A stretch of 22,344 nucleotides of DNA from a virus. Below the pieces are notes generated by a model. It searched no databases and had not been told where the DNA came from. It saw nothing but the letters and a program-made list of their open reading frames with translations. Both the position numbers and the translations under genes were made by a program. Every line of letters starts with the position of its first letter. Position 1 is the stretch's first letter. The stretch is taken from the IMG/VR virus record IMGVR_UViG_3300025306_000010, positions 1 to 22,344 of that record. One strand, 5' to 3'. Below, in pieces: positions 2,175-14,381 of the stretch.

Positions 2175-2426
2175 ATGAATGTCCAAACCCCCCAAGAAAA
2201 GAAGCGCCAGTACAATAAAACATACAACCAAAACCGCAACGCAAAGCGCAATGCTTACCTACTCGACGTAAAGCAGGTGAAGACCGTAAAGAAAATTGAG
2301 GTCGAATATCCTGGCTGCGCTTTCCGTGACAGAATGAGCAAAGCTGAGTTTGACCGGCACCCGGATACTGAATTTCCTTCCGGAACCAGGATATTCATGG
2401 GAGATAAAACGTGGATCATAAAATAG
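2175..2426 (+). CDS. Small basic protein of unknown function
   Basis: This 83-residue protein starts at ATG 2175, with GAGGAG overlapping the previous gene's end. The N-terminal third is highly basic and Asn/Lys rich (QEKKRQYNKTYNQNRNAKRN). The rest is a compact, mixed segment ending in a β-like TRIFMGDKTWIIK. No family is recognised. It lies in the replication/methylation operon, 3 bases after the winged-helix gene and overlapping the methyltransferase by 16 bases, so it is probably co-translated with both. Nucleic-acid binding is plausible from charge alone. Confidence 0.65.
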   Translation: MNVQTPQEKKRQYNKTYNQNRNAKRNAYLLDVKQVKTVKKIEVEYPGCAFRDRMSKAEFDRHPDTEFPSGTRIFMGDKTWIIK

Positions 2427-4165
2427 CCGTCGACGAATGGGCGGGATGTTATCCGTCGAACTGGAAAGGCATGATCGTCCCGGATGCCATAGCGCATCCG
2501 GCGAAATTCTCGTCGAAACTCATCCGGCGCATCTATGAACACATGAGAGAAGAGGATTGGATACCGGAAGGCTCGACAATAATTGATCCCTTCGGAGGGG
2601 TCGCGCTTGGGAGTCTGGACGCCCAGCGACTAGGTTTGTGCTGGCGGGGGGTGGAATTGGAGCCTCGTTTTGCAGATTTAGGAAACGCCAATATCGCAGA
2701 GTGGAATCGCCGCTTTTCGAGGATGCCGGGCTGGTCAGTGGACGCGCACCTGTTTAATGGCGACAGTCGGGAATTGGTAAAGGTTCTAAAAGAAGCGGGG
2801 GCGCTTGATCCGAGGTCGGCTGTATCAAGTCCGCCGTATGCTGGAACTCCGATAGTCTCTTTCACAGACGACAAAGAACGCACGAAGGAAATAAATCGTC
2901 AATTGAAAAAGCAAGGGTATATCGAATGGCAAGGAAAGAGATACTCCGAAGTCGAATGGCGCGCTATGAACCACGGGCGCATTGACGGACGCACTACGCG
3001 CGGAGCAAAAAAGGGCGCGATTGGCTACTCCGCCGCAACAATATCATCTCCTCCTTATGCTGAAAGCATCGGTAACGCCGAACAAAGTGGGATTGATTGG
3101 AGCAAGCAGGCGGACCGGGAAACCACACACCCGCATGGATGGAACGGGGCTGGCTACTCCGCCGTCGTTACTTCCCCGCCGTATGCAGACAGTATGGAGA
3201 AACCTAACGGGATTGACCGGGACAAAATAAAGAGCACAGCCGGCCCAAACAGTCAGGCCCTGCAAGATACGCGGTACTCTGCCCCCGCCGCGCCTTCGGC
3301 TGTTATTTCTTCCCCGCCTTACGCAGACGGATGTGCTCACACTGGCGGGGACACGCCCACCAGCCAGGATCACATCGAAGGCGGTACGATCAACCTACCA
3401 GGTATCCGTGGTGTAGTTTCCAGCCCGCCCTACTCCGAAACCCGCATCGGGCAGGAAAGCGGTCAGGAGAGTTGTGGGCCCGGCGACCAGTATAGCTCAA
3501 CACCAGGACAGCTTGGATCTATGAAAGCCAACGGGTTCGAGGCGGCAATCTCTTCCCCGCCCTGGGGCAAAATGGAAGAAGGCCAGGGAATTGCTGCCGC
3601 CTTACGAGGAGAAGAGACCAGATCAACTTTGCCCAATAATCACTCCGGCCCTAATCAGGGCTACCAGGCCAGCGTGAGCAGTCCGCCGTTCCGCCAAACT
3701 TCCGGCGGCACAAACGAAAACAATCCTCTCGGCAGAGGCGATCCAGGTCTTATCCGCAGGCACGCAGCCGGAAACGCAGCCGCCAAAGCCTACGGATCAA
3801 CGGATGGACAACTTGCCAATACAACAGATGATGACTTCTGGATGGCTGCCCGTCGGATATTAGATCAGGTCTACCAGGTGCTTGAACCAGGCGCTCACGC
3901 AGTCTGGGTGGTCAAGTCATTCGTCAAGAATAAGGCCCGTGTTGACTTCCCGAATCAATGGCGCCAGGTTTGCGAGGCGGCCGGTTTTATAACGCTCCAC
4001 GAACACCACGCCCTGCTCATCCGTGACAAAGGCACCAGTCACACCTTGGAAGGCGGGACGGTGCATCACCAGACGGAAACCAAGTCATTCTTCCGCAGGC
4101 TGGCTGAAAATAAAGGATCACCCAGGATCGATTGGGAAGTGGTCTATTGTATGGTTAAGCCATGA
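2411..4165 (+). CDS. DNA amino-methyltransferase with seven SPP(Y/W/F) motifs
   Basis: This 584-residue protein starts at GTG 2411, with GGGAG 7-8 bases upstream. Motif I of an S-adenosylmethionine methyltransferase is at 59-63 (DPFGG) and the acidic motif II at 80-87 (GVELEPRF). The catalytic motif IV (S/D)PP(Y/W/F) of N4-cytosine/N6-adenine enzymes appears seven times, with serines at residues 140, 213, 255, 301, 338, 382 and 424, mostly as SSPPYA. The C-terminal part (about 475-584) has LEPGAHAVWVVKSF and LIRDKGTSH, resembling the closing strands of the fold. The normal enzyme has a single motif IV, so the middle 300 residues look like a repeat expansion. It overlaps the C5-methyltransferase by ATGA. 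The target site is unknown. Confidence 0.8.
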   Translation: MDHKIAVDEWAGCYPSNWKGMIVPDAIAHPAKFSSKLIRRIYEHMREEDWIPEGSTIIDPFGGVALGSLDAQRLGLCWRGVELEPRFADLGNANIAEWNRRFSRMPGWSVDAHLFNGDSRELVKVLKEAGALDPRSAVSSPPYAGTPIVSFTDDKERTKEINRQLKKQGYIEWQGKRYSEVEWRAMNHGRIDGRTTRGAKKGAIGYSAATISSPPYAESIGNAEQSGIDWSKQADRETTHPHGWNGAGYSAVVTSPPYADSMEKPNGIDRDKIKSTAGPNSQALQDTRYSAPAAPSAVISSPPYADGCAHTGGDTPTSQDHIEGGTINLPGIRGVVSSPPYSETRIGQESGQESCGPGDQYSSTPGQLGSMKANGFEAAISSPPWGKMEEGQGIAAALRGEETRSTLPNNHSGPNQGYQASVSSPPFRQTSGGTNENNPLGRGDPGLIRRHAAGNAAAKAYGSTDGQLANTTDDDFWMAARRILDQVYQVLEPGAHAVWVVKSFVKNKARVDFPNQWRQVCEAAGFITLHEHHALLIRDKGTSHTLEGGTVHHQTETKSFFRRLAENKGSPRIDWEVVYCMVKP

Positions 4166-4971
4166 GCGAAGACTATGTCTTACATAACGGAATTGTGTGT
4201 CCTTTACACGTCGCAACCAAACCAAAGTTACCCGTGGGGATTGATCTATTCTGTGGCTGCGGAGGCTCCAGTCTTGGATTTATGCAAGCTGGCTTTGAAA
4301 TCATTGCCGCATGTGATAATGACCCTGTGGCTGCAATCACTTATACTTATAATCTGGGGGCATATCCCATGAAGTTTGTCTTCATCGAACCGAGTGACCG
4401 GGAAGCAATGGAAAAAGCACTCCGAAAAGAAATGGGCTTCGACTCGAAAAAGAATGAGATTAAAAAGGGTTTTATCACCGGCCAGGGTTGGAAACACTCT
4501 CATCCGGAAGTGCCTGGCGTGGGGGTTTTCTTTCTGGGAGACATCCGTAAATTGACCGGCAAACAGATTCTTGATGCAGTAGGCAGGAAACTCGGAGAAG
4601 TAGATTGCGTGATGGGCAGTCCCCCCTGCCAGGGATTTTCCACGGCAGGTAAGCGAGAAGTTATGGATCCAAGGAATAGTCTGGTTTTTGAATTTGCTCG
4701 CTTGGTGCTTGAGATCAAACCCAGAACGATGATATTTGAAAATGTGCCCGGCATTATAAACATGCTTACTCCAGAAGGTCTGCCCGTGCTGGACGTCTTT
4801 TGTAATATGCTGGAGAAAGGTGAATATGGATCCGCTGAAGTGCTGAAGAAATCGTTGCTGGTCAGCGCAGGTATGGGAGCGGCGGTAAAAGGGAAAAAGC
4901 GCATCAAAAGAAAAGATCCGGAAGAAACCGAAGTGGATAAAACCGATCTTCAATTAGAACTAAATCTATAA
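4162..4971 (+). CDS. C5-cytosine DNA methyltransferase, C-terminally short
   Basis: This 269-residue protein starts at ATG 4162, coupled to the previous stop. Motif I is at 28-40 (DLFCGCGGSSLGF), the catalytic motif IV at 152-160 (GSPPCQGFS, nucleophile Cys156) and motif VI ENV at 193-195. About 75 residues with many lysines separate motif II from motif IV, more than usual. The C-terminus (from about 235) is a Lys/Glu tail ending LQLELNL. I see no QxRxR (VIII), no target-recognition domain and no motif X (GNxVxP), so it is much shorter than the usual 330-450 residues. It may need a partner, be a distinct short phage subfamily, or be inactive. Confidence 0.8.
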   Translation: MSEDYVLHNGIVCPLHVATKPKLPVGIDLFCGCGGSSLGFMQAGFEIIAACDNDPVAAITYTYNLGAYPMKFVFIEPSDREAMEKALRKEMGFDSKKNEIKKGFITGQGWKHSHPEVPGVGVFFLGDIRKLTGKQILDAVGRKLGEVDCVMGSPPCQGFSTAGKREVMDPRNSLVFEFARLVLEIKPRTMIFENVPGIINMLTPEGLPVLDVFCNMLEKGEYGSAEVLKKSLLVSAGMGAAVKGKKRIKRKDPEETEVDKTDLQLELNL

Positions 4972-10742: not shown

Positions 10743-11165
10743 TTATTCCAGCGTGCCCCGTGCGAGCCAGTATTGCACCCGCGCCATTTTTTTGACAATT
10801 GCACGCAACTTTATCACCGTATCCGCCGCGTCAATTGCATTACTGACGGCCAGCCAAGTGGGGAGATTGTCAATTACTGCCTGCTTTCTTTGCGCAATAA
10901 GCAGAGAAGCGGCCTGCAATAATGCACTGCTAACATCCGATATGTTTCCGTCCCCGTCGTAAATCAGTTTTGCCACAGCGTTCCCAAGTTCTGGATCCGC
11001 GTTTTCGTCCAGGTTGATAACGCCCTGGGTAGCAGGCGGAATGTTATATCGGCCGCCAGGCAACACATTGAGAAAGCCATCAGCCACAAACGTTTCCGGA
11101 TTGAGGCACGTGCCTGTCATGAAGCGTTTCAGATTCCCGGAAGTTTTATCGTAAACGATTATCAT
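10743..11165 (-). CDS. Phage structural-region protein of unknown function
   Basis: This 140-residue protein starts at ATG 11165-11163, overlapping the previous stop (ATGA) and preceded by AGGAG. It begins IIVYDKTSGNLKRFMTGTCLNP. The C-terminal half is helical (about 80-138: SALLQAASLLIAQRKQAVID and following). No family is recognised. Near the end, codons 125-126 (Lys-Lys) lie in a run of seven A on the coding strand (10787-10793). The -1 frame stays open for more than 50 further codons to a TGA just before the hub gene, so a longer product is possible. Confidence 0.65.
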   Translation of the reverse strand: MIIVYDKTSGNLKRFMTGTCLNPETFVADGFLNVLPGGRYNIPPATQGVINLDENADPELGNAVAKLIYDGDGNISDVSSALLQAASLLIAQRKQAVIDNLPTWLAVSNAIDAADTVIKLRAIVKKMARVQYWLARGTLE

Positions 11166-11536
11166 TTTTGACTCCTGTTTTGACTAGCCAGCCATCCGCC
11201 CAGCGTCACGGCGCCACCGCTGAATGCCAGGCCATAGACAATTGCCTGCATAGTGATGCCATGCAGGATAAATGCGATCCCGATCCCGGCCCAAACTGAC
11301 ACACAAACCACACAGGTCAGGCCGAGAGCCAACCATCGCCGAAAGAAAGATAATTTTACGGGAGGGTTGTTGCTCATAAATAGCGACAGTTCTTGGGGCG
11401 ACAATCCCTCAGGCGGCACGGGGCGCTTAGTGAGCCAATATCGGAACGGTTCTGAGATCGTGTCCTGCGCAACGATCTGCGCAAAACGGTAAGTTCCGAA
11501 AACCCCAACAAGCAGTAATATGATATTTATTGTCAT
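11162..11536 (-). CDS. DUF1360-like small membrane protein
   Basis: This 124-residue protein starts at ATG 11536-11534, overlapping the RT stop (ATGA). The pattern matches DUF1360: FGTYRFAQIVAQDTISEPFRYWL near residues 13-36, and a later ALGLTCVVCVSVWAGIGIAFIL with paired cysteines. Hydrophobic segments lie at about 3-18, 75-95 and 98-118. The family is found in phages and bacteria and its function is unknown to me. It sits directly after the RT, translationally coupled to it, and overlaps the next gene in the same way. Confidence 0.75.
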   Translation of the reverse strand: MTINIILLLVGVFGTYRFAQIVAQDTISEPFRYWLTKRPVPPEGLSPQELSLFMSNNPPVKLSFFRRWLALGLTCVVCVSVWAGIGIAFILHGITMQAIVYGLAFSGGAVTLGGWLASQNRSQK

Positions 11537-12564
11537 CCGATGCTCCATTTCACGCTGTTGAATAAGGATTTTCGCAGATGCCACGTCTGCGCATAACTTG
11601 CATGAGCCGCCCAGGATCTCAGGCGCTCTCCTACTGATGCCGCATCCTCGAAGCCACTGCGATACAGGTGCGCCAGCCAGTGTACCATGCGAGCAGCACG
11701 GACCACGTTGTGGCGTGCCAGACGGCGCACTCCGGGCTGCAACACTCGAAACCCAAGCCAGTTGATACCAGCCCTGGCTGGGCTCAGCATAGTACGGGTT
11801 GGGTTGAGGATCAGACCTAACCCATCCAAGAAAACGACGATAGCCTCCCGCCACTGATGCAACTGTTCTTTCGAGTTCGAGAAGATCGCAAAGTCGTCCA
11901 TGTAACGAACGTAGCTGTGAATGCCCAGGTGCTCTTTCGCAAAATGATCTACCTGGTCCAGGTATATGTTTGCGAATAACTGTGAAGTGAGATTTCCGAT
12001 TGGAATGCCAGTATTGGGAGTTGCGCCGGTGCTGATGCTGTTCACGATCGTCTCGACCAGCCGTTTCATTTCCGGCTCACGCAGCCTGCGGTTGACCAGT
12101 TCGATCAGTTTGTCGTGCGGGATATTGAAGAAGAATTTACTGATATCCAGGCGCAAGATAAATGCCGGGCCGGTGACCTCGCACGCCCGCCAGTGGTGAT
12201 CCAGCGCTCGAAGGGCCATGTGCGTGCCTTTTCCCACCCGGCAAGCGTAGTTATCCGAGATCATGGCCCGGTCGAAGATCGGCTCGATCGCAGCAACCAG
12301 GCTGTGATGCACGATCCGGTCCCTGAATGCCGCCGCATATATCTTGCGTGGCTTCGGGTCAATGATCGAGAAACTCCGATAGCCGCTGGGTTTATAACTC
12401 CCGTCTCGCAGTTCCTGGCGCAGTTTTGTGAGTTGGCTCTCTAGATCATAGGCCAGCGAAGCCATTGCCGATGAATTGCGTTTGCAGCGCCGGGCACGTC
12501 GATATGCCAGGTAGAGTTGTTCTGTGTCTGTGACATGCTCCCAGAGGTTGCCGTAAGTTTTCAT
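11533..12564 (-). CDS. DGR reverse transcriptase
   Basis: This 343-residue protein starts at ATG 12564, chosen because the conserved N-terminus (MKTYGNLWEHVTDTEQLYLAYRRAR) begins there; the frame stays open to 12996, but that part is a shadow of TR and avd. RT motifs: LRLDISKFFFNI (137-148, Asp140), GIPIGNLTSQLFANIYLD (186-203) with the IGxxxSQ signature of DGR and related RTs, and the catalytic YMDD at 221-224. It copies TR RNA into cDNA with errors opposite adenines, for transfer to the VR. Its start overlaps the stop of the TR-spanning frame and its stop overlaps the DUF1360 gene. Confidence 0.95.
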   Translation of the reverse strand: MKTYGNLWEHVTDTEQLYLAYRRARRCKRNSSAMASLAYDLESQLTKLRQELRDGSYKPSGYRSFSIIDPKPRKIYAAAFRDRIVHHSLVAAIEPIFDRAMISDNYACRVGKGTHMALRALDHHWRACEVTGPAFILRLDISKFFFNIPHDKLIELVNRRLREPEMKRLVETIVNSISTGATPNTGIPIGNLTSQLFANIYLDQVDHFAKEHLGIHSYVRYMDDFAIFSNSKEQLHQWREAIVVFLDGLGLILNPTRTMLSPARAGINWLGFRVLQPGVRRLARHNVVRAARMVHWLAHLYRSGFEDAASVGERLRSWAAHASYAQTWHLRKSLFNSVKWSIG

Positions 12565-12872
12565 AGCACCTGCCCCATGAAGGAGTGCTCGACGGGAGCG
12601 TTGGCGCACCGCGCTACTAACCCCCGTCGCGCGGTGATCTTCGGCCCAGCTTGCGGGCACGGGGTCGGACCGAGTCTCTCTCGGGGCTGGCGCACTAGCC
12701 TTGACCGGTGCGCATCCGCCCAATATGGAGGCTTGGAGCAGCAACGAAAGCCGATGTTCGTGTTGACGTTCCGAGGCGAGTTGTTGCCGTTGACATACCA
12801 GCCACCCGCGTTGACCGAGTTGTTCCAGTTGCCACCGCGGATGAGGGCGCGTAAGGTCCTGACCCCAGTCAT
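12561..12872 (-). other. Open reading frame spanning the TR, coupled to avd and RT
   Basis: A frame of 103 codons runs from ATG 12872 (overlapping the avd stop as ATGA) to TGA 12561 (overlapping the RT start as ATGA). Its first 46 residues are the TR read in the VR frame and end in GFRCCS. The last part (KPPYWADAHRSRLVRQPRER and on) matches nothing I know. It is not an independent lectin or FGE gene. It may be translated only to couple avd and RT, or be an ORF kept open because the TR mirrors coding sequence. Confidence 0.5.
12735..12851 (-). repeat. DGR template repeat (TR)
   Basis: A 117-base segment is nearly identical to 13308-13424, at a constant offset of 573. Twelve bases differ, all of them A in the TR on the coding strand: plus positions 12755, 12763, 12782, 12790, 12791, 12796, 12811, 12812, 12823, 12824, 12829, 12830. 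There are 24 adenines in the TR, so half are substituted, and none of the 93 other positions is. Four Asn AAC codons became Leu CTC by double substitution. It lies between avd and the RT. Confidence 0.97.
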
Positions 12873-13252
12873 ACAGCATGCTCCAGGTAATAATTGTGCG
12901 GCACGCTTTTATCAAGCGTGGCTCGCAACCAGCCCCAGAGCAGCCGACCGACTTCATCGAGTAACCCGGCAGCGTATTCGTACTGCCGAAAGGCAATGAA
13001 TTTGAGCTCCATCGCCAGGCGAATTAGTGTTTTGAGTTGCCGCAGCTTCACCACCAGCTCAGCCAGTGTGGCCGTCTTGCTTTGTTCAGCATTGGCCTGA
13101 ATTGCTCCCAACATAATCTCCGTGGCCAGCTTCTGTGTTTGCTCACCCAGTACGTAGCGCTGTGTTTTAGGGTAGTTGGCTACAACCGGATAAAGCCATT
13201 TGCAAAACTGGTACAGGCGATCGTGAATGATGAGGTGCTGCTTTTCTGCCAT
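12869..13252 (-). CDS. avd: DGR accessory variability determinant (Avd-like four-helix protein)
   Basis: This 127-residue protein starts at ATG 13252-13250. It is almost entirely helical with conserved Avd features: IIHDRLYQFCKWLYPVVANYPKTQRYVLG at the N-terminus and YEYAAGLLDEVGRLLWGWLRA near the end. Avd proteins form a barrel-shaped pentamer, bind the RT and are required for mutagenic retrohoming. Position between the VR gene and the TR is the classic order. The ATG has no good ribosome binding site (CTTAAACG upstream), unlike neighbouring genes, so translation may be weak. Its stop overlaps the next frame as ATGA. Confidence 0.93.
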   Translation of the reverse strand: MAEKQHLIIHDRLYQFCKWLYPVVANYPKTQRYVLGEQTQKLATEIMLGAIQANAEQSKTATLAELVVKLRQLKTLIRLAMELKFIAFRQYEYAAGLLDEVGRLLWGWLRATLDKSVPHNYYLEHAV

Positions 13253-13304
13253 CGTTTAAGTCCACAGATTACAGATTGTCAGATTACAGATTTCAGGAGA
13301 GAGC
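13253..13304 (-). repeat. Tandem 13-bp direct repeat downstream of the VR
   Basis: CAGATTACAGATT occurs at 13265-13277 and 13280-13292 on the plus strand, 15 bases apart. The gap lies between the end of the variable repeat and avd, where other DGRs carry a hairpin needed for efficient homing. I see no clear hairpin here, so the direct repeat may have another role or none. Confidence 0.5.
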
Positions 13305-13327
13305 CTAGGAGCAGCAACGAAAGCCGA
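13301..13327 (-). other. Initiation of mutagenic homing (IMH)-like end of the VR
   Basis: The 3' end of the VR on the coding strand (13308-13327, about TCGGCTTTCGTTGCTGCTCC) has no adenine and is identical to the TR. Just beyond, bases 13301-13307 align with 12728-12734 but differ at two places (13304, 13307). That is comparable to the IMH/IMH* mismatch that makes transfer directional in BPP-1. The stop codon TAG of the target is one of these differences; the TR reads AAG there. Confidence 0.65.
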
Positions 13328-14381
13328 GGTTCGTGCTGACGTTCCGAGGCGAGTAGTTGCCGAGGACAAACCAGCCACCCGCGAGGACCGAGTTGAGCCA
13401 GAGGCCACCGCGGATGAGGGCGCGAGGCCCCTGATGTGCGTCAGGGCCTGCGTTGACTCCGAATGCGGTGTAGGCCTCTCCGCCTTCACTCTCGTTGGTC
13501 CAGGTTCCGGCTTCGTTTGTGTACGCCCAGCCGTTTTGATCAGCCGCCACGTCGGTGACCATTGACCAGGTCGCAACACGCTCAAGAACATTTCCGACCA
13601 TGTCGTAGCAGCCTAATGTGGACACGCAATTCGGCAAAGTCCCGGTGGCGTGGCTGCCGGCATTGGCTGCCGCGGTCCAGCAGTTGTCGTTATTGTTCGC
13701 TCCTGGAGGCGTCCCAAACACAGCCATGCTCCACTCCTCGTTCGAGCACAGCCGTTTACCTGCGTTCATACAAGCCTTGTACTGCTGAAAATATGTTCCT
13801 GAGACCCACGGCGTGGCGTTGTAGGCTGATGCTGCGGCGTTGCCAGCGTGGACAGCCTTGCCCGTTCCGCCAGAGTCACTGGCGATGTAAATATCGATCA
13901 TCCAGCTTGAACCGGGGAATTGAAGCATCCCTGGCTTGGGGCCTTTCTCTGGATAGTCTACATCCGCATCGCTGCGTGCGCTACCGATGGAATACCGCAA
14001 GATGGCGCTTCCTACATTGTTGTGGAACCAGCCGATGAGTCGGAAATTGGCATATCCGGTCGGGGCGGTAGCGCTGAGCGAAATGATGGCGTCGAATTGA
14101 CCAGGCACTGCCCCAGGCACGGCATGGACAAAGTAATCCTTCCCGGCGGCCTCCGCGCCGGTATCGAGATTCGCAAATGTCACGTTAAAAGCAGCGGCAC
14201 GGTCATACGCCACCCCGTTGATAATCAGTCCGCCAATGCCGATGCTTATAGTGGATACATCTACCCAAGACAGAAAGCACTTATGCTTACCCGTCGTCAT
14301 TACAATGTCTGCTCGTAAACTATTATACTGGGTAGCTAAAATTCCTCCGCCTGCTGCTACATCTGCTGAGTGAATAGTCAT
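13305..14381 (-). CDS. DGR target: FGE/C-type-lectin-like tail receptor-binding protein
   Basis: This 358-residue protein starts at ATG 14381, with AGGAG 8 bases upstream. Residues 1-150 are β-rich and virion-like (IGGLIINGVAYDRAAAFNVT, YANFRLIGWFH), probably the attachment part. Residues about 155-358 fit the FGE-sulfatase/SUMF1 fold used as a C-type-lectin scaffold by DGR targets: GKRLCSNEEWSMAVFG (209-223), GCYDMVGNVLERVATW (257-272), RALIRGG (320-326) and the terminal GFRCCS. The variable residues lie in the last 39. It should bind host surface ligands at the tail tip. It follows the 14394 fibre-type gene and precedes avd in one operon. Confidence 0.92.
   Translation of the reverse strand: MTIHSADVAAGGGILATQYNSLRADIVMTTGKHKCFLSWVDVSTISIGIGGLIINGVAYDRAAAFNVTFANLDTGAEAAGKDYFVHAVPGAVPGQFDAIISLSATAPTGYANFRLIGWFHNNVGSAILRYSIGSARSDADVDYPEKGPKPGMLQFPGSSWMIDIYIASDSGGTGKAVHAGNAAASAYNATPWVSGTYFQQYKACMNAGKRLCSNEEWSMAVFGTPPGANNNDNCWTAAANAGSHATGTLPNCVSTLGCYDMVGNVLERVATWSMVTDVAADQNGWAYTNEAGTWTNESEGGEAYTAFGVNAGPDAHQGPRALIRGGLWLNSVLAGGWFVLGNYSPRNVSTNLGFRCCS
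13308..13424 (-). repeat. DGR variable repeat (VR)
   Basis: This is the last 117 bases before the target's stop. Compared with the TR it changes eight residues: Leu327, Leu329, Leu333, Phe338, Leu340, Tyr343, Ser349 and Leu352 (TR: Asn, Asn, Asn, Tyr, Asn, Asn, Asn, Ile). Unchanged AAC codons (for example Asn330, 342, 347, 351) remain as further mutable sites. Confidence 0.97.

What the first reader, a model, noticed from the sequence alone, without database searches (positions are those of the whole stretch)
11533..13424. Complete diversity-generating retroelement in a phage tail module
VR, avd, TR and RT are all present in canonical order on one strand. By my count all 12 TR/VR differences fall on TR adenines (12 of 24 adenines, 0 of 93 other bases). 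The target is a tail-region FGE/C-type-lectin-type protein with eight changed residues in its last 39. Four AAC to CTC double changes show dense adenine mutagenesis rather than ordinary drift.
Basis: partly seen in the sequence, partly recalled or inferred. Interest (0 to 1): 0.92.

Follow-up and report, generated by a model that had tools for sequence, protein, structure and literature searches.

The report
Phage tail-tip hypermutation cassette (DGR)
A virus of bacteria carries a complete, probably working cassette that rewrites one end of a tail protein at chosen letters; the cassette is a known kind, but just behind its rewritten stretch lies a regular 7-8-letter repeat array that turns out to mark such sites widely and that I could not find described.

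Summary
On the minus strand the window (an IMG/VR virus fragment) carries target gene with VR, avd, TR and reverse transcriptase. All 12 TR/VR differences in 117 nt lie at TR adenines (12/24 A, 0/93 other; p = 3.5e-10). RT, Avd and target match DGR families, and the target has an Mtd domain plus an FGE/C-lectin end. Its two sister contigs L010/L011 differ at 3 of 1,240 sites upstream but 14 of 104 in VR, nearly all at TR adenines, so the family is active in nature. As a DGR this is a new member of a well-known kind.

Just after VR, at 13298-13264, are five (A)ATCTG units at 7-8 nt pitch, and the GC hairpin reported to follow phage VRs is missing. A 7-8-nt array follows VR, not TR, in most of 74 viral loci, isolates and bacterial DGRs. 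In a BPP-1-type phage its units coincide with the mismatches of the 21-bp IMH said to set directionality. Similar arrays precede free-standing relatives of Avd. I propose the array is the general target-site (IMH) mark, possibly read by Avd. That role is untested.

The parts
13305..14381 (-). Target gene (358 aa), Mtd-like tail protein with FGE/C-type-lectin C-terminus
   Evidence: Pfam mtd_2nd 1.3e-9 and FGE-sulfatase 2.1e-7; PHROG tail protein 4.2e-14
13308..13424 (-). Variable repeat (VR); homology runs on to 13305, taking in the stop codon
   Evidence: 12/12 differences at TR adenines; extended segment 13/13
13264..13298 (-). Array of five (A)ATCTG/CTGA units, CTG pitch 7,7,8,7 nt, directly after VR
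   Evidence: 7/8-nt periodicity 0 of 2000 shuffles as high; no GC hairpin here
12869..13252 (-). avd, accessory variability determinant (127 aa)
   Evidence: bAvd PF22296 2e-23; PHROG Avd 5.1e-24; dN 0.017, dS 1.13 against L009
12735..12851 (-). Template repeat (TR)
12565..12734 (-). TR-RT spacer, expected to hold the structured RNA that binds the RT-Avd complex
   Evidence: position only; read; no Rfam family matched
11533..12564 (-). DGR reverse transcriptase (343 aa), motifs IGNLTSQ and YMDD
   Evidence: tree

Best explanation
This is a diversity-generating retroelement of a tailed phage. Transcribed TR RNA is copied by the RT-Avd complex with errors opposite adenines, and the cDNA replaces the VR at the 3' end of the Mtd-like tail gene, varying eight or more surface residues and presumably receptor binding. 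Shown here: anatomy, adenine-only TR/VR differences, intact RT and Avd frames, and VR variation between two near-identical sister genomes. Inferred from the BPP-1 work: the copying mechanism and the receptor role. New part: the stretch just after VR is an array of five ~7-nt CTGA-type units, without the usual hairpin. Such arrays follow VR, and not TR, across DGRs, so the array most likely marks VR as the recipient, as the 21-bp IMH element does in BPP-1. That last step is inferred. The stated confidence is for the DGR itself; for the array as target mark I would give about 0.5.
For: TR/VR. Families. Sister pair L010/L011: 3 of 1,240 upstream and 14 of 104 VR differences; against TR, 16 of 18 and 15 of 17 fall at A. 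Contigs L007, L008 and L011 end just before, just after or inside VR, as expected if VR varies in the sample. Array: 74 dereplicated loci, CTG in 45 nt after VR 226 against 117 in dinucleotide shuffles (z 16), ATCTG z 29, none after TR or before VR. Motif-free lag-7/8 signal after VR in viral (z 18/6), isolate (5.7/2.2) and bacterial (7.9/10.3) sets, weak or absent after TR. It persists where no avd lies within 250 nt: 20 of 29. BPP-1-type phage: VR GTGA-CTGA-TTGA against TR GTGC-CACC-TTGC; Guo 2011 gives 5 mismatches in a 21-bp element that set directionality (PMC3240598).
Against: No VR variation seen for this exact phage: L006/L013 has the same VR. Relative L009 has lost most of the RT and the end of TR, so decay happens in this lineage. 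The AlphaFold model of the target failed (pLDDT 28), so the fold rests on Pfam. No experiment tests the array; the BPP-1 match is one case read after the fact, with degenerate units.
Confidence: 0.95

Rival explanations
1. The cassette is a recently silenced DGR: the VR is a fossil of past homing and no longer changes in this phage, perhaps because the hairpin is gone.
For: L006 has the same VR over 9.5 kb of otherwise identical sequence; no hairpin after VR; relative L009 is visibly decayed; in BPP-1 loss of the inverted repeat strongly reduces homing (PMC3240598; PMC12875486).
Against: RT and avd frames intact, catalytic motifs present; avd under strong purifying selection (dN 0.017, dS 1.13); hairpin-less relative L010 and its twin L011 differ in VR almost only at TR adenines; several other hairpin-less loci keep adenine-biased TR/VR pairs.
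Confidence: 0.12
2. The array belongs to avd, not to VR: a regulatory repeat upstream of four-helix-bundle genes that lies after VR only because avd does.
For: Free-standing four-helix-bundle genes without an RT or TR/VR have 7-8-nt arrays upstream in 22 of 31 (p<0.01 each; controls).
Against: Arrays follow VRs with no avd within 250 nt in 20 of 29; upstream of distant avd genes the signal is 8 of 24, mostly where another VR lies there; remote VR-like sites L102, L107, L117, L135, L137, L156 carry array and hairpin.
Confidence: 0.1
3. The array is a by-product: slippage or repeated 3' joining during retrohoming leaves short tandem repeats that do nothing.
For: 7-nt perfect minisatellites with similar units exist elsewhere in viral contigs; arrays vary in copy number.
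Against: Units are degenerate but pitch (7 or 8), CTG core and place between VR and hairpin are kept across RTs around 40% identical or less; unit type differs by clade.
Confidence: 0.2
4. The array pairs with the DGR RNA, or supplies stop codons in all frames.
For: CTG is most often followed by A (125 of 228), and stops in all three frames occur in 31% of loci against 11% in shuffles.
Against: No excess complementarity or identity between array and the avd end-TR-spacer RNA (mean z 0.0 and 0.15); about 45% of units are not CTGA and 69% of loci lack three-frame stops.
Confidence: 0.05

Closest known systems
Bordetella phage BPP-1 DGR (mtd-avd-TR-brt)
   Same: Same gene order; Avd; Mtd-family target; adenine-only TR/VR changes at the 3' end of the tail gene; RT matches the solved reverse transcriptase 8ub7 (that 8ub7 is the BPP-1 enzyme is from my own knowledge).
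   Different: BPP-1-type phage has a GC hairpin with GAAA loop 4 bp after VR and only a short degenerate three-unit form of the array inside IMH; the window has five clear units and no hairpin.
Phage DGRs of VP58.5, phiARM81mr, BalMu-1 and other SUMF1/FGE-type targets
   Same: FGE/C-lectin target, avd, TR, RT; post-VR 7-8-nt units.
   Different: Their RTs match the window's at <60% identity (33-38% listed); they keep the hairpin.
IMG/VR contigs L010/L011, L009, L008
   Same: Same target family (59-79%), avd (71-97%), array after VR, no GC hairpin where the region is held.
   Different: L009 has lost most of RT and the TR end; L010 VR lacks one codon relative to TR.
Free-standing four-helix-bundle (23S_rRNA_IVP) genes
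   Same: Distant relatives of Avd (window Avd scores 7.8e-6 to PF05635, below its cut-off); 7-8-nt arrays nearby.
   Different: No RT, TR or VR in the stretch; arrays lie upstream of the gene; unit on the gene strand is more often TCAG or GTAG.

Membership tests
Diversity-generating retroelement | RT of the DGR type | tested here: met
   RVT_1, PHROG RT 1.3e-114, 8ub7 1.6e-82, IGNLTSQ and YMDD motifs
Diversity-generating retroelement | TR/VR pair with differences at TR adenines | tested here: met
   12 of 12, 13 of 13 in the extended segment
Diversity-generating retroelement | VR in the 3' end of a gene with C-type-lectin/FGE fold | tested here: met
   Pfam FGE-sulfatase to residue 357 and mtd_2nd; fold itself not modelled (pLDDT 28)
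Diversity-generating retroelement | Accessory protein (Avd) | tested here: met
   bAvd 2e-23
Diversity-generating retroelement | VR hypervariable while TR is constant | tested here: inconclusive
   VR variation met in sister pair L010/L011; only one other VR of this very phage available and it is identical
BPP-1-type DGR target site | GC-rich inverted repeat with GRNA loop within about 4-34 bp after VR | tested here: not met
   No hairpin in 90 nt after VR, folding weaker than shuffles
BPP-1-type DGR target site | IMH and IMH* differ, marking VR as recipient | tested here: inconclusive
   Post-VR and post-TR sequences differ completely after 13305/12732; the array is present only after VR; function not testable here
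Diversity-generating retroelement | Mutagenic homing in an assay | not testable with these tools
   needs experiment

The most novel reading that the evidence does not exclude
DGR target sites carry a general, so far undescribed mark: three to five iterated 7-8-nt units (CTGA, TTGA or CATTTA by clade) between VR and the hairpin, of which the 21-bp directionality part of the BPP-1 IMH is a degenerate case. The mark is read by Avd, a pentameric four-helix bundle whose free-standing relatives sit behind arrays of the same pitch. In the window's clade the array alone, with no hairpin, defines the target.
Probability: 0.3. Interest if true: 0.85.

Novelty: new variant of a known kind. Interest (0 to 1): 0.55.

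Why it matters
DGRs are used in nature, and increasingly as tools, to diversify proteins. How the machinery tells VR from TR and what it recognises at the target is open: the cited papers leave the role of the hairpin, the endonuclease and cDNA integration unresolved. A regular repeat mark at most target sites, absent behind TR and tied to Avd relatives, turns that question into a short mutational experiment. It would also help find remote or hidden target genes that lie far from any RT.

Tried and rejected
Pairing of the array with the DGR RNA: no signal. Array as multi-frame stop codons: only partly fits. CAG enrichment after TR as a complement of CTG: it belongs to the conserved spacer RNA (CAG pairs about 29 nt apart), not to a repeat. 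Array as an avd upstream element: rejected for DGRs. AlphaFold of the target from five sequences: pLDDT 28, not used further. PDB sequence search with the Avd profile: nothing. Degenerate VR pattern over viral contigs: only the near-identical contig. Rfam over the DGR: nothing credible. 48 of 80 hits of the array pattern have no avd or RT in the stretch held; about a dozen of these look like remote VR sites with hairpins, most of the rest are 7-nt minisatellites without DGR context or coding sequence, so the bare pattern is not DGR-specific.

Full report
WHAT IS THERE. The window is a 22,344-base IMG/VR virus record. On its minus strand lie, in order, a 358-aa tail protein gene whose end is the VR (13424-13308), avd (13252-12869), TR (12851-12735) and an RT gene (12564-11533). 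The TR/VR repeat is the only long repeat nearby. All 12 differences in 117 nt are at TR adenines, p = 3.5e-10. Extending the alignment adds a thirteenth, in the stop codon, where TR has AAG and VR TAG.

FAMILIES. RT: RVT_1 1.5e-24, PHROG reverse transcriptase 1.3e-114 and, as a profile, solved structure 8ub7 at 1.6e-82; motifs IGNLTSQ and YMDD are intact. Avd: bAvd 2e-23. Target: mtd_2nd and FGE-sulfatase, PHROG tail protein. Phage records in the annotated collection carry only RTs below 60% identity; in a tree of 88 RTs the window pairs with L010 (62% identity) on a deep branch.

ACTIVITY. A second contig (L006/L013) is identical over the whole DGR, VR included, and departs from the window only below 10824, where it switches to a relative, i.e. 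is mosaic. Contig L007 stops 38 nt before VR. The best evidence is the sister pair L010/L011 from data sets with consecutive numbers: 3 differences in 1,240 aligned positions upstream of VR, 14 in 104 within VR. Against their TR, 16 of 18 and 15 of 17 differences are at adenines. So the family is active in nature; for the window's own copy this is inference.

TARGET SITE. Guo et al. 2011 (PMC3240598) describe a GC hairpin with GRNA loop 4-34 bp after VR in phage DGRs and a 21-bp part of IMH with 5 mismatches to TR that sets directionality. In the window no hairpin follows VR. Instead there are five CTG units at 7, 7, 8, 7 nt pitch, 13298-13264.

IS IT GENERAL? An RT-profile scan gave 80 viral loci. 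With those already held, 81 loci have an adenine-biased TR/VR, 74 entries remain after dereplication. In the 45 nt after VR, CTG occurs 226 times against 117 in dinucleotide shuffles, ATCTG 102 against 11; nothing after TR, before VR or 100 nt on. Successive CTGs are 7 or 8 nt apart in 122 of 157 cases. Under a threshold with 1% false positives, 58 of 89 loci have the array after VR and none after TR. A motif-free test (self-match at lag 7/8) is positive after VR in 74 viral loci, 13 isolate phages and 35 bacterial VRs, and weak or absent after TR; per-locus p<0.05 in 56/74, 8/13 and 24/35 against 5/74, 2/13 and 0/34 (bacterial loci). The unit differs: ATCTGA in most phages, TTGA in others, CATTTA in a chromosomal clade.

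DOES IT GO WITH VR OR WITH AVD? It is there in 20 of 29 VRs without avd within 250 nt, and generally not upstream of distant avd genes unless another VR lies there. It goes with VR. In a BPP-1-type phage (L222) the VR reads GTGA-CTGA-TTGA at 8 and 7 nt inside or at the edge of the 21-bp stretch, while TR reads GTGC-CACC-TTGC: most IMH/IMH* mismatches fall in these units. This is one case seen after the fact, but it links the array to an element with known genetics.

LINK TO AVD. Free-standing four-helix-bundle genes, without RT or TR/VR in 3.3 kb, carry 7-8-nt arrays upstream in 22 of 31 at p<0.01; other lags and other regions are near background. I infer that this protein family recognises iterated 7-8-nt sites, and that Avd may read the array behind VR. 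That Avd is a pentamer is from my own knowledge; five units of about 7 nt would suit it, but this is only a thought.

PRIOR ART. Full-text searches and passages read in the main papers mention hairpins and IMH but no post-VR direct-repeat array. Subscription papers, including the original IMH work, could not be searched, so 'undescribed' is provisional.

LIMITS. The 74 loci were chosen by RT similarity to the window and relatives, so they sample avd-type phage DGRs best; the bacterial set comes from one phylum. Some loci scored as lacking array or hairpin have imperfect copies that the thresholds missed (compare). L007, L008 and L011 ending at VR fits VR diversity but could be chance.

VERDICT. 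The DGR itself is ordinary: a clear new member of a known kind, in a divergent RT branch and with a hairpin-less target site. The array is real beyond chance and general; its role is a hypothesis.

Noticed in passing
window 2411-4165 (+): A DNA methylase-like protein (N6_N4_Mtase 2.9e-7) carries the catalytic-type motif (S/T)SPP(Y/W/F) seven times in one 584-aa chain (read), where one copy is expected; overlapped by a short C5-type methylase at 4162-4971.
   Followed up: no
L253-L303 (free-standing four-helix-bundle genes): Heptamer arrays such as (GGCAGTA)n, (GAGTAGT)n, (GTCAGCC)n lie just upstream of 23S_rRNA_IVP/Avd-like genes with no DGR.
   Followed up: partly
L009 7433-7857: Relative with a nearly identical Avd (97% aa) but TR cut after about 95 nt and most of the RT deleted; a decayed DGR or an assembly artefact.
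   Followed up: partly
L006 / window 10743-10824: Near-identical phage contig switches abruptly to an 88%-identical relative with a 118-nt gap: a recombination mosaic.
   Followed up: partly
L010 3941-4053 against TR 4508-4623: VR lacks one codon relative to TR; an in-frame deletion within AAC-rich template, fitting slippage.
   Followed up: no
window 13305-13307 / 12732-12734: The target stop codon TAG lies opposite AAG in TR (AAT in L010), so the T of the stop sits at a template adenine at the very edge of homology.
   Followed up: no
L102, L107, L117, L135, L137, L156: Genes ending in a VR-like C-lectin motif followed by array and hairpin with no avd or RT in the stretch held: probable remote DGR targets.
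   Followed up: partly
window 12869-13252 against L009: avd under very strong purifying selection: 48 of 56 differences at third codon positions, dN 0.017, dS 1.13.
   Followed up: yes
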